This document shows, in pieces, positions 18,880 to 24,800 of a stretch of DNA of 64,000 nucleotides; the stretch's first letter is position 1, and the number at the start of each line of letters is the position of its first letter. This DNA is from Hydra vulgaris (Eukaryota > Cnidaria > Hydrozoa > Anthoathecata > Hydridae). A program made the translations under genes and the position numbers. The notes below the pieces were generated by a model, which was not told the origin of the DNA, did not search any database, and worked only from the letters and a program-made list of their open reading frames with translations. Where the stretch lies: NCBI RefSeq assembly GCF_038396675.1, contig NC_088921.1, positions 10,269,001-10,333,000 on the forward strand. Reading direction: 5' to 3'.

Positions 18880-21800
18880 GTAAGATTGTCTGATAATATA
18901 TATATATATATATATATATATATATATATATATATATATATATATATATATATATATATATATATATATATATATATATATATATATATATATATATATA
19001 TATATATATATATATATATATATATATATATATATATATATATATATATATATATATATATATATATATATATATATATATATATATATATATATATATA
19101 TATATATATATATATATATATATATATATATATATATATATATATATATATATATATATATATATATATATATATATATATATATATATATATATATATA
19201 TATATATATATATATATATATATATATATATATATATATATATATATATATATATATATATATATATATATATATATATATATATATATATATATATATA
19301 TATATATATATATATATATATATATATATATATATATATATATATATATATATATATATATATATATATATATATATATATATATATATATATATATATA
19401 TATATATATATATATATATATATATATATATATATATATATATATATATATATATATATATATATATATATATATATATATATATATATATATATATATA
19501 TATATATATATATATATATATATATATATATATATATATATATATATATATATATATATATATATATATATATATATATATATATATATATATATATATA
19601 TATATATATATATATATATATATATATATATATATATATATATATATATATATATATATATATATATATATATATATATATATATATATATATAGGTACG
19701 TGGACTGATTTTTTTAGATTGAGCATATCCTAGAATGTTATATATCATAAGAAAGCCCTTCAGTACAGTATTTTAAAGGTGAAAAAATTGTTAAAAATGA
19801 GCAATTTAAACAAAAGTTATGACGTTTTTAGTAGCAAATTTTCGATATATGGATTTATTAAAGAAACTGGTTCCGAAATTTTTTTTTTTTTCACTTAAAT
19901 TGTTATAACTTTGTCAAATCTTATCCAAAAGCCTATATCTTGGTATCAAAAGATAGATGTAAGAGTAGGCTACAATTTCATATAACTCTCTAGATAAAAA
20001 GGGTGTCTAGAGGGCCAGAGGGGGTACCGGAACACCATCATACCTTTAAAAAAATACAAGTTTTTCACACGAAAGAGTGTTTTCCTGATAAAATATGTTA
20101 TCTTTAAACACAAAAAGTTGTTCTAATTTACTTCCATTCCATTTTCAAATATTAGAGGTCTATTTTAGATTAAAGGGTGGATGTCTTTGTTACGTTTTAA
20201 CACCCGCCAAGTGAAATGTAACATTCTTATAAATACTTTAACCTAAAAAACACTGAATATAATTTGTGTTAAAAAAATTTAAATTATATTTTCTTACTTT
20301 ACAGCATATGCAAGTGGTGTATAAATTGACATTAGGGGCGGGACATGTGCCATGTCCGACGCCCCTTCCTGCCCAGCCTTCAACCTAAAAAAAAAGTTTT
20401 TTAATTATTTGAAAAAAGGCTATAAATTGAGTTTGGTGGAAAAAGAGAAATAAGTATTTAAATTATTTTAATATGTTAGTTAGGGAAGGGGCGTGTGCCA
20501 CGCCCAACACCCCTCCCCCCCCCCCCCACCTCTCCCTTCTTATTCAAACTTGAAAAAAATGTCAATAAAAATTTTATAAATGTTTTTAAATTGTGTTTAT
20601 TTAAAAAGAGAGACATAACTTTACAAATCTTTACCACATTATAATCTTTACCACATTACAAGATGAAAGTTGGAGTATCCACCCTAAAAATAAACCAAAG
20701 ATAAAACTAATTTTAAAAATAATATTTTTAAAGTACAAAATATAAATTTTTAATTTACAAAATATAATAAATTTATGTCTTGGCTTTTAGTAAATGATAT
20801 TATTTAAAATTCCAATATAGAAACTAAATAAATCATTTTTAACAATAGACACCACGTGAAGGTAAGCCAGAGCCGTCTATCAAAAATATTATACAGCAAG
20901 TTTTGTAGCTTGCAAAAAGAGTACTTGCAGTACTCTTTTTGCAAGCTGTATTGCTGTATTATAGTTTCAGCTAAATTTGCCTAAACAAACAAATAAATAT
21001 ATAATAAACAAATAATATATAACAATTTATTAAAAATTAATAACATTATAAACAATGTAAAAAAATAATGAAATTATATAAACCTAAAAAATCTCAAATA
21101 ATTTAAAAATCTCATATATACCTTCTATAAACAAGTAACGGTTACCAGAAACTAGTATTTCAACCTCAATAATGCAAATATAATTTTTAGGAACTGTATA
21201 ACTGTATAAACATAACTGTATAAACATAACTGTATAACTGTATAAACATAAGGTAAACTAATTTAAAATCAAATAACTATTAATAAAGTTTTTATAAACT
21301 AATTTAAAATCAAATAACTATTAACAAACAGTTTAAATAAACTAAAGCAAGAATAGTAAATAAGTATGCAAAATACCCTTCAAATTTATCAAGATTTGAA
21401 ATATTACATATTAAAATTAGCATTGCATTTAACGTGGCCTACGAAGTCCTAAAAAAACCTAATTCTATTGAAAAGTCTACATCTATCTAAAGTTTAAAAT
21501 TTACAAGTTTTTATACTACAACTTTTGAAATGTTAAAAAGTATTTTATTAGGCCTATTACAATTTGTTTTTAAATTTTTTTGCGTAAAAATTTGAAAAAA
21601 ATAATCGAAATGCTAATAATTGTAAAATTTGGTAAAAATTGGAAAACAAACTTGCTGATATGAAATATGTATTTTATAAAGAAAAGGAATGGTGGTGTCT
21701 AATAATTGTAATAATCACCATGGACCACAAGGCTACCACCATTCCATCTTCTCTGTCTGCTTCCTCTGCTGACACGACCTCTACCATATCCCCTTCTGCT

Positions 21801-24800
21801 GTGGTTCCCAGCACCCTTGTTAGGAGGATGATAGGGCCATTTAAAGGATTCATTGTCCTTTCCTCCTAAGTTGACCCATCGTTTGAAAGACTTATTGCTA
21901 GTAGGTCCAGGATGCTGGGACCTATATAATAGATACTGTTGATACGTTAGCTCTAAATGACAATGATTTGTAAATAGATTAGTTCTTAATAGCATTATGT
22001 AAAATTTAAAATAAAACAATTAATTGTGAAAGTGATAGGCTGAATAAATAATATGAACAACGTATTAATCTATGATAGCTTAAAAAAATGTTAATAATAG
22101 TAATAACTTCATTCTACTGCACTTTGAGGGATAACACAATACTAATGCATTAAACAGGGTAAATAAGTAGAAACATAAATTCAATAATCATTCAGAAACA
22201 TTTCTAAATCATAAATTTACCAGCAGAAGGTTGTGCACATGTAACTAAAGATAAAAAAAAGTTTTTATAGAAATTTTCAATTGATAAGAAAAGTGTACAT
22301 GTTTGCAAATAATATCTTTTAAACTTAGAAATGGTAGTAGATTAGTACTTAATAGCATTATGTAAAATTTAATACAAAAAAATTAATTGTGAAAGTGATA
22401 GGCTGAATAAATAATATGAACAACGTATTAATCAATGATAGCTTAAAAAATGTTAATAATAGTAATAACTTCATTCTACTGCACTTTGAGGGATAACACA
22501 ATACTTATGCATTAAATATTGTAAATAAATAGAAACATAAATTCAATAATCATTCAGAAACATTTCTAAATCATAAATTTACTAGCAGAAGACTGTGCAC
22601 ATGTAACTAAAGATAAAAAAAGTTTTTATAAAAATTTGCAATTGATAAGAAAGGTGTGTACATGTTTGCAAATAATAGTTTATTAACTTACTAGTCGTTG
22701 TAGCTGCTGAAGATGTAACTAAAGGTTACCAAAGTTGTAATTAAAAATAAATACTTTAATTGCCAAGATATATATATAAACATATTTAAAAGTAAAAATT
22801 TGTAAACATACCACTTATAGCAGATATAGAAGGAACTTGTAAAGAATGTAAAGGTTGAAAATAATTTAATAACAAGAATGTAATTGAAATAAAAAATTTA
22901 TATTGTAGTCCTCGAAAATATGTACACACATATTAAAATGTAATAATCGGTTAAACTTACCATTTGGTGAAGACGAAGATGTAACTGAAATTCAAAATTT
23001 GTAATAAAAAATAGATATTGCAAATAATGACTTTGAAATTGGTCATTAACATATACAAAATTATACAATCTTACCAGTGGTAGGCTGTGTAGATTCGACT
23101 AAAATTAAATTAAAAATTGTACACAATATCATTTGAAATTAATTAAAATTAAGTTGCAACAACTATACTAACAAAATGAAAATAAACAATGAAAATATAA
23201 CTATAAAAAATATAAAGATAATATATTTATAAGCAACATGGTTATAAACTTATTAACAAACAACAAACTTATTAACAAACAACAAACACAGATAAAGATA
23301 GTATACAATAAGTAAAAAACATTACCTTATATTTTTTAAGTGTTTCTATATATAGGAAGATATTATAAATGTTTATTAACATTTACTCATTGTTTACTAT
23401 TTTCTCTTTGTGATTATGTAAATGTTTTTGTAATGAATAAATCCAAAATTTATGTGACTTATACTTACGAAATCTTAAAAAATCTGCAAAAAGATGGGTA
23501 GGATCTAAACAAAAAATAAATATTAGACATGCTTGTATAATGATTTAAACACTAATACACAGATAAACTTTATCTGATAAACTTTATCATAAAGAAGTCA
23601 CAGATAAACCTCATCACAGATAAACTTTATCACAGATAAATTTTATCATAAAGAAGTATATAGTCCATACATTATAAAAGACAATAACAATGATATGTTT
23701 TATAATAAAACACATATAAATAAGTATATTACATACTTCATTAGTTTAATCTTAACAAAAAACTTCTTAGTGTTTTTAAAATATTAAATGTTAGTGTTTT
23801 TAAAATATTAAAACTTTTGCTACTGAAACATTAATCTTTTTTTATATCATATAATGATATTTGATATTTTATATTTGATAATTGATATTTTATTTGATAT
23901 TTGATAATTGATATTTTATATCAAACCTTAATTAATTTTTATTTAACATATAATATATGTTAAATAAAAATTAATTAAGGTTTTACATTAATTATTATTT
24001 ATGGATTTGAAAATAGTCATTAATACTATTATTATGAATAAAAAAAAATTGAACTTACTATCTGTTAGTGCAGCAAGAACATTTTTGTTAATATTGTCCA
24101 TATTAAATTAAATCTAATAATATAAATCAAAATAATTCAAAATAAGATTTTTATTTGAATCGCCCCTTTATCTGGATTTCGGCCCCACCCGGATTTCGCT
24201 TACCAAAAAAACAACAACAACAGAAAAACCGAAATAAGGTACCTAAAGTCCAACACCAGTTAGACTAATTGCTTATAATTATTTTTCGTTGAAATTTGGC
24301 ATGTTCATAGAAAATGCATGAAGCAAACTATTTTAACAATAAAAAAAGCGGACTCTATAATTCTTCGACTACAAATCCACTTGACAACATTAACCAAATT
24401 TTCATGCAAAATTCTCAGCAAAATACTCCATATAAAAGTATGGTAGCGATACATAATAGTTATATAAAAATTAAGCCAAACCTTTCTTCTTTTCAAAAGT
24501 TGTCAAGGTTTATGTATGTTTCTAAAGAAAACCACCTCAAAAAACCGTTTGCCTAAGGCTACCTAAAAAAAGTGGTACTCTTGGTATAACACTAATTAAA
24601 CTAATTGCTTATAATTATTTTTCGCTGAAATTTGGCATGTGCATAGAAAATGCATGAAATAAACTATTTTAATAATAAAAAAAGCGGACTCTACATTTCT
24701 TCGACCACAAATTCATAAGAGAACATCAACCTAATATTCAAGAGCAAAATATCACATAAAAAACTTTAGTAACCGTAATAAAAGTCTTTAAAAAATCAAG

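What the first reader, a model, noticed from the sequence alone, without database searches (positions are those of the whole stretch)
21699..24101. A previously unrecognised micro-exon gene with six symmetric 24/27-nt exons
Seen: on the minus strand nine exons with canonical splice signals join, all in phase 1, to a single 159-codon ORF. Six internal exons are 24 or 27 nt. Sixteen splice sites and an uninterrupted 480-nt frame are unlikely by chance in DNA this rich in stops. Known: arrays of symmetric micro-exons are described as 'MEGs' in schistosomes, where skipping creates protein variants. Inference: this cnidarian gene could generate combinatorial variants of a short Ser/Thr-rich region in front of an Arg/Gly-rich tail.
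Basis: partly seen in the sequence, partly recalled or inferred. Interest (0 to 1): 0.88.

Follow-up and report, generated by a model that had tools for sequence, protein, structure and literature searches.

The report
A jumping gene with tiny exons
A mobile DNA element in a Hydra-like genome carries a gene chopped into exons that each encode about eight amino acids, and the copies counted differ in how many of these exons they hold, which suggests that short coding exons can be added and removed like beads.

Summary
Nine exons on the minus strand join to a 480-nt, 159-codon frame, with six micro-exons of 24 or 27 nt, all phase 1. None of 2,000 shuffles of the stretch matched it.

The reading as a lone unrecognised gene does not hold. 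The gene lies in a 5,274-bp DNA transposon (window 19693-24966) with 10-bp inverted ends, 7-8-bp target duplications and an empty-site paralogue. The genome has 233 matching 5' ends and 201 matching 3' ends.

Diverged copies support the exons. Aligned without asking for splice signals, they keep AG in 72 of 74 and GT in 72 of 74 cases, against 0.69 of other intron dinucleotides and 0.54 of exon dinucleotides. Terminal-exon dN/dS is mostly below 1 between subfamilies. Twelve diverged loci hold 4 to 10 recognised micro-exons, mostly in units near 113 bp.

Best reading: a transposon accessory gene whose Ser/Thr-rich linker changes length when exon units are gained or lost, and possibly by exon skipping. 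The element's transposase was not found. No RNA evidence could be reached.

The parts
19693..24966 (-). whole transposon, 5,274 bp
   Evidence: boundaries shared with other copies; end patterns found at window 24942-24966 and 19693-19718
24957..24966 (-). 5' terminal inverted repeat TAGGTACGTG
19693..19702 (-). 3' terminal inverted repeat CACGTACCTA
24059..24101 (-). exon 1, [14 protein letters not shown], phase-1 donor
   Evidence: of 13 other loci 11 align over all 43 nt with donor GT, L053 has a broken donor and L029 aligned only in part; ATG kept in 8 of the 11
23469..23504 (-). exon 2, 36 nt, [12 protein letters not shown]
   Evidence: of 12 other loci where it aligns, 6 keep donor GT and 6 have AT (five of the 4.1-kb group and L053); not found in L051
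23075..23098 (-). exon 3, 24 nt micro-exon (ESTQPTT)
22961..22984 (-). exon 4, 24 nt micro-exon (TSSSSPN)
22812..22835 (-). exon 5, 24 nt micro-exon (PSISAIS); weak acceptor
22692..22718 (-). exon 6, 27 nt micro-exon (TSSAATTT)
22583..22606 (-). exon 7, 24 nt micro-exon (TCAQSSA), tandem duplicate of exon 8
22221..22244 (-). exon 8, 24 nt micro-exon (TCAQPSA)
21699..21952 (-). exon 9, terminal exon: conserved domain with QHPGP motif, then Arg/Gly-rich tail and stop
21975..22703 (.). tandem duplication of about 362 bp (22338-22703 and 21975-22340), each unit with one micro-exon
24967..25043 (.). (TA)n target, one side (limits approximate)
18894..19692 (.). (TA)n target, other side (limits approximate)

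Best explanation
The stretch is one copy of a DNA transposon with short inverted ends and 7-8-bp target duplications, often sitting in (TA)n. Its only recognisable gene is a spliced micro-exon gene (shown by comparison, not by RNA). The protein has three parts: a short N-terminal piece (exons 1-2), a Ser/Thr/Pro-rich linker built from 8- or 9-residue modules (one per micro-exon), and a conserved domain (predicted as two helices) with an Arg/Gly-rich tail. In the diverged subfamily most micro-exons sit in exon-plus-intron units near 113 bp. Copies differ by whole units, so the linker changes in steps of about 8 residues without breaking the frame (differences shown; unequal exchange or slippage as the cause inferred). 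Because all introns are phase 1, splicing could also skip any subset (possible, not shown). I infer that the protein is a nucleic-acid-binding accessory factor acting in trans, since derivatives with a dead gene also spread, while another, unidentified element supplies the transposase.
For: Transposon: 10-bp inverted ends. Of 10 end pairs fetched, 5 show an exact 7-8-bp duplication, 1 shows it with one mismatch, 4 lie in (TA)n and are uninformative; L039 also gives 7 bp and L029 7 bp with one mismatch. Empty-site paralogue on C11 at 97%. 233 5' ends and 201 3' ends, control patterns 0. Exons: five window micro-exons aligned to 19 diverged loci without asking for splice signals: 95 cells, 74 aligned, 21 not; AG kept 72, GT kept 72, length a multiple of three 73, open 72 of 74; other intron dinucleotides kept 0.685, exon dinucleotides 0.539. 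In 12 diverged loci 60 of 60 AG..GT pairs with score 5 or more and any length of 16-45 nt are 24 nt; these loci are related, so the 60 are not independent. Exon 1 donor kept in 11 of 12 fully aligned loci. Selection: terminal-exon dN/dS 0.13-0.71 in the 9 of 14 window comparisons that could be computed. Array size 4-10 in 12 loci. Dispensable in cis: five of five 4.1-kb-group copies read have exon 2 donor AT and no convincing terminal-exon match.
Against: No RNA. Open frame alone is weak: of 58 distinct exons 56 are open in phase 1, but 47 and 52 are open in phases 0 and 2. Near-identical copies differ only by amino-acid-changing substitutions (window-L021 4 to 0, window-L022 2 to 0), as expected of dead copies. 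Two pairs gave dN/dS above 1 (L050-L046 1.23, L021-L025 1.11), and no errors were computed on 47 codons. Exon 2 has lost its donor in 6 of 12 loci and the start codon is missing in 3 of 11. Between close relatives (L028 against 11 loci) the splice sites are barely better kept (AG 100, GT 103 of 107) than other intron dinucleotides (0.911). The protein has no Pfam, PDB-sequence or fold match, so nucleic-acid binding is a guess from the Arg/Gly tail and two predicted helices; structure confidence is modest (pLDDT 64.8).
Confidence: 0.78

Rival explanations
1. A host micro-exon gene captured whole by a transposon (Pack-type capture) and carried as passive cargo without function.
For: No transposase recognised in the element; near-identical copies carry only amino-acid-changing differences; derivatives with a dead gene spread.
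Against: dN/dS mostly below 1 between old subfamilies and splice sites kept across diverged copies need function over a long time. Whether one of the 150 scored hits (997 candidates) is a host parent gene was not examined.
Confidence: 0.15
2. A satellite-like tandem repeat in a transposon in which AG and GT recur at 24-nt distance by descent from one unit; no splicing.
For: Units near 113 bp in tandem; openness of the exon frame is only a little better than in the other phases; close relatives keep splice sites only slightly better than other intron positions.
Against: Against diverged copies AG and GT are kept in 72 of 74 cases each, other intron dinucleotides in 0.685. The window array has unequal spacing yet keeps 24/27-nt exons. 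Exon 1 and the terminal exon fit the same phase and are conserved. Within arrays splice signals agree by 0.80-0.85 and exons by 0.55-0.58, but those units were chosen by their splice signals, so this is biased.
Confidence: 0.05
3. The micro-exon array is chiefly a regulatory device: many small exons make splicing inefficient, limiting or tissue-restricting the protein, as regulated intron splicing does for the Drosophila P element (recalled).
For: Exon 5 has a weak acceptor; array length varies.
Against: Most units keep good donors and acceptors, and exon length is nearly exact, which regulation alone would not need.
Confidence: 0.12
4. The gene encodes part of the element's own unusual transposase.
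For: It is the only recognisable gene, and its domain is also found in a second, more distant high-copy family (family B, 150 copies scored).
Against: 159 residues without a Pfam match; derivatives without a recognisable terminal exon still spread, though they could be moved in trans.
Confidence: 0.07

Closest known systems
Micro-exon genes (MEGs) of Schistosoma and tapeworms
   Same: Runs of short exons divisible by three, so that exons can be skipped in frame (passages of PMC8293314 and PMC7653826).
   Different: This one is inside a transposon and differs in exon number between copies by whole units; Ser/Thr linker and Arg/Gly tail; no sequence relation was tested. In the passages seen, the schistosome review describes transposons as driving MEG family expansion and as flanking a duplicated micro-exon, not as carriers of the gene.
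bicycle genes of gall aphids
   Same: A gene family found by gene structure, in a paper that mentions microexons (listing and start of abstract of PMC9168663 only).
   Different: Described as putative effector genes; that they are host genes not carried by transposons is recalled.
P superfamily DNA transposons (Galileo)
   Same: Mostly 7-bp target duplications, three copies with 8 bp (PMC4168063 passages).
   Different: No P transposase recognised in the element. A P family lying near two copies has its own inverted ends and is a separate element.
Pack-type transposons
   Same: A TIR transposon carrying a non-transposase gene (listing and start of abstract of PMC8277862 only).
   Different: Here the gene is kept through several subfamilies and contains an exon array of varying size.

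Membership tests
Micro-exon gene (operational rule of PMC7653826: at least 7 exons; at least half are micro-exons under 70 nt and divisible by 3; run of at least 4) | number of exons, share of micro-exons and run length | tested here: met
   predicted structure: 9 exons, 7 of 9 are micro-exons (36, 24, 24, 24, 27, 24, 24), run of 7; rule read
Micro-exon gene | in-frame skipping possible | tested here: met
   128 of 128 combinations keep the frame
Micro-exon gene | skipping or variants seen in transcripts | not testable with these tools
   no RNA data
Schistosome MEG (homology class) | sequence relation and secreted, host-exposed protein | not tested
   no flatworm proteins were searched; the N-terminus [14 protein letters not shown] does not look like a signal peptide to me (judged by eye)
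TIR DNA transposon | terminal inverted repeats | tested here: met
   TAGGTACGTG / CACGTACCTA
TIR DNA transposon | target-site duplication | tested here: met
   7-8 bp; 5 exact and 1 with one mismatch of 10 pairs, 4 uninformative
TIR DNA transposon | empty site | tested here: met
   C11 paralogue joins window 18058-19006 to 24967-25433
TIR DNA transposon | own transposase | tested here: not met
   ORFs of 55 aa or more in the window copy: none of the 10 scanned matched a transposase. In three of the five longest paired copies the transposase-like ORFs lie in stretches that interrupt the element; a spliced transposase of small exons would be missed
P superfamily | P transposase with the same ends | tested here: not met
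   the P family near two copies has other ends; only 150 of 2,203 candidate P hits were scored
P superfamily | 7-8-bp target duplication | tested here: met
   not specific

The most novel reading that the evidence does not exclude
A transposon carries an expandable micro-exon cassette: each transposition lineage tunes the linker of its accessory protein in 8-residue steps by gaining or losing exon-intron units, and alternative splicing multiplies the variants, perhaps to track a changing transposase or to escape host silencing. Transposon arrays could then also be a source of micro-exon genes for hosts.
Probability: 0.25. Interest if true: 0.9.

Novelty: new variant of a known kind. Interest (0 to 1): 0.72.

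Why it matters
How micro-exon genes arise and grow is unclear to me from what I read. Here many related copies in one genome, with 4 to 10 recognised micro-exons in the 12 counted, form a natural series in which exon gain, loss and splice-site constraint can be read directly. It also shows a mobile element with a gene architecture that annotation tends to miss (exons of 24 nt; the tapeworm paper notes that MEGs are hard for gene finders and read aligners). Literal-term searches of a partial library found no paper on this: micro-exon + transposable element + Hydra, 0 papers; micro-exon genes + cnidarian, 0; microexon + transposon + tandem exon duplication, 1, an exon-orthology tool; micro-exon genes + transposon-encoded, 0.

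Tried and rejected
Transposase in long copies: of 40 paired copies five exceed 5.3 kb; I read three in full. The 13.3-kb copy holds a pogo-type element (DDE_1; TSD TA) and a MULE (54-bp inverted ends, 9-bp TSD ATTATTTTG), both nested. The 12.8- and 8.0-kb copies are interrupted by hAT-like, non-LTR and other transposase-like ORFs that I named by eye only; their ends were not sought. I first took the MULE for the element's own transposase and dropped this after finding its ends. The 6.8- and 6.9-kb copies were not read in full.

P transposase: hits near three copies (C6, C5, C8; 150 of 2,203 candidates scored). The C6 copy lies next to the (TA)n of a P element; in C5 the P element starts about 2.7 kb away; the P family has its own inverted ends and no TAGGTACG. 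Rejected as the same element.

Family B (L044/L045 and flanks): related terminal exon, no transposase ORF seen in 15 kb, ends not found.

RRM search served only to learn the genome. A wrong-frame translation was discarded. Pfam, PDB sequence and fold searches of the protein gave nothing useful (best PDB sequence E 0.17).

Within-array identity and the junction profiles were taken from units or exons chosen by their splice signals and are biased; I rely instead, where the splice sites were not asked for.
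Full report
This fits the published AEP haplotype of Hydra vulgaris (912 Mb, 15 chromosomes; passages of PMC12220107), but the identity is inferred.

Observation. Exons 7 and 8 lie in a tandem duplication of about 362 bp. A generic splice score (my own weights, recalled) applied to lengths of 18-45 nt gave six AG..GT pairs in the 2,106-bp stretch: four of 24 nt, one of 27, one of 36; exon 5 fell below the cut. Five pairs of 24/27 nt were open in phase 1; dinucleotide shuffles gave a mean of 0.076 and a maximum of 3 in 2,000, and the other strand gave none. 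The shuffles do not correct for the stretch having been chosen from 64 kb.

It is a transposon. The terminal-exon peptide found 997 candidates in the genome. 150 were scored; 14 of them, the window included, are 93-100% identical over all 84 residues, and 3 of these 14 contain a stop. DNA comparison puts the shared unit at window 19693-24966. It ends in TAGGTACGTG and CACGTACCTA. Of ten further copies whose two flanks were fetched, five show an exact duplication (CTTGATG, CTGAAAG, CATAGGG, AATTTATA, ATAGTATG), one has one mismatch, and four lie in (TA)n where it cannot be read. L039 has ACAATAG and L029 a 7-bp duplication with one mismatch. Of the 19 copies with both flanks read, 11 sit in (TA)n. 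A paralogous site on C11 lacks the element: window 18058-19006 and 24967-25433 are neighbours there at 97%. End patterns with up to three mismatches occur 233 and 201 times, with no match to reversed control patterns. From the first 100 ends listed of each kind, 40 pairs could be made; 35 of 40 are 2.1-5.3 kb long and five are longer.

The exons are supported by diverged copies. The test least open to circularity is: five window micro-exons with 40-bp flanks were aligned to 19 diverged loci without asking for splice signals. Of 95 cells 74 aligned across the exon and 21 did not. AG was kept in 72, GT in 72, a length divisible by three in 73, and an open phase-1 frame in 72 of 74. Other intron dinucleotides were kept in 0.685 and exon dinucleotides in 0.539. 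A match may fall on a neighbouring unit of the same array. Between close relatives (L028 against 11 loci, 107 of 110 cells aligned) the contrast is small: AG 100, GT 103, against 0.911 for other intron dinucleotides.

In twelve loci whose terminal exons are 54-63% identical to the window's, all 60 AG..GT pairs of 16-45 nt with score 5 or more were 24 nt long; the loci are related, so these are not 60 independent events. L050, L051 and L052 show the same pattern with three exceptions by length outside 24, 27 and 36 nt (19, 20 and 42 nt). Homologous exons can be followed by name: exon 3 (ESTxPxT) and the last micro-exon (xxAQPSA). Exon 1 is 43 nt with donor GT in 11 of the 12 loci that align over its whole length, with ATG in 8 of those 11. 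Exon 2 aligns in 12 of 13 loci; 6 keep donor GT and 6 have AT. In 18 loci of the window's own subfamily, its own place (L009) included, exons 3-8 are intact in 102 of 108 cells, broken in 4 and not found in 2; where a copy has one unit instead of two, exons 7 and 8 map to the same place and are counted twice.

Two further profiles point the same way but are biased, because the exons were picked by their splice signals: across subfamilies the first ten intron bases agree by 0.95-1.00, exons by 0.78-0.85, and the outermost intron positions read (61-90 bases away) by 0.32-0.57 in ungapped register; at exon 3 the acceptor side (0.77) is no better than the exon (0.79). Within the arrays of L028 and L036, acceptors agree by 0.82-0.85, donors by 0.80-0.81, exons by 0.55-0.58, other intron parts by 0.42-0.56.

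Selection. On up to 47 codons of the terminal exon, the window copy against 14 others gave nine usable dN/dS values: 0.13, 0.15, 0.24, 0.26, 0.31, 0.32, 0.49, 0.57 and 0.71. Three pairs were saturated and two had no synonymous change. Codons with a stop were dropped and no errors were computed. Two other pairs exceeded 1 (L050-L046 1.23; L021-L025 1.11). The frame test alone is weak: 56 of 58 distinct exons are open in phase 1, against 47 and 52 in phases 0 and 2.

Exon number changes by whole units. In twelve loci the recognised micro-exons number 4 to 10, most at spacings of 99-116 bp; L038 has 4 (spacings 232, 99, 112) where L028, L032 and L036 have 10. These loci were fetched with only about 1,500 bases before the terminal exon and some hold decayed units, so low counts are minima. 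All 128 skipping combinations of exons 2-8 in the window copy keep the frame.

What the protein may do. The terminal exon holds a conserved domain (invariant Y10, Q13, H14, P15, W26, G31, F37, W39, P43 in 20 sequences), predicted as two helices (4-13, 20-28) followed by disorder (mean pLDDT 64.8; 90, 87 and 90 in the first three blocks of ten). No Pfam family matched, the best PDB sequence had E 0.17, and no PDB fold matched. An Arg/Gly-rich tail suggests nucleic-acid binding; this is inference.

The transposase is not known. The window copy has no long ORF; ten ORFs of 57-81 aa gave no transposase match in Pfam. A transposase split into small exons would be missed. Three of the five longest copies were read and hold nested insertions. 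In a related group of about 4.1 kb, five of five copies read have exon 2 donor AT and no convincing terminal-exon match, so the gene is probably not needed in cis. The 7-8-bp duplication resembles that of Galileo of the P superfamily (PMC4168063 passages), but the P family found near two copies is a different element.

Comparison. By the rule used for tapeworms (PMC7653826 passage) the predicted structure is a micro-exon gene. No homology to flatworm genes was tested. In the passages I saw, the review of schistosome transposons describes transposons as helpers in MEG family growth and in one micro-exon duplication, not as carriers (PMC8293314). The literal-term paper searches found nothing on transposon-borne micro-exon arrays; the library is partial.

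Noticed in passing
window 18370-18850 and 25630-30534 (+): The transposon sits, antisense, in a (TA)n between ORFs of another sequence with a close paralogue on C11; the ORF at 29878-30534 has a weak Tesmin/CXC match below its cut-off.
   Followed up: partly
C6:42080947-42081144 and 149 further scored places (L044, L045): A second, more distant family with the same QHPGP domain: 150 of 1,243 candidates scored, 86-100% identical, many without stops; short exon candidates upstream; ends and transposase not found.
   Followed up: partly
L047/L048 (C1:31968350-31981850): One 4.1-kb copy contains a nested pogo-type transposon (TSD TA) and a nested MULE with 9-bp TSD.
   Followed up: yes
window 41177-42640 (-) and 57270-57671 (-): A NACHT-domain ORF (E 3.3e-15) and a Death-domain ORF (E 1.1e-12), domains known from innate immune receptors.
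   Followed up: no
window 14272-16567 (+): hAT-type transposase pieces: DUF4371 (E 2.8e-13) and hAT dimerisation domain (E 4.2e-8), split into frames.
   Followed up: no
L029, L030, L031, L034, L036, L038 terminal exons: In these diverged copies the Arg/Gly tail runs into a repetitive stretch that replaces the usual end of the protein; in most it begins VLWLAK or VIWLAK.
   Followed up: no
C5:30172715, C6:32363606: A P-transposase family (nine scored places at 93% or more, 40 of 1,470 candidates scored) has a micro-exon transposon near two of them; local preference or coincidence unresolved.
   Followed up: partly
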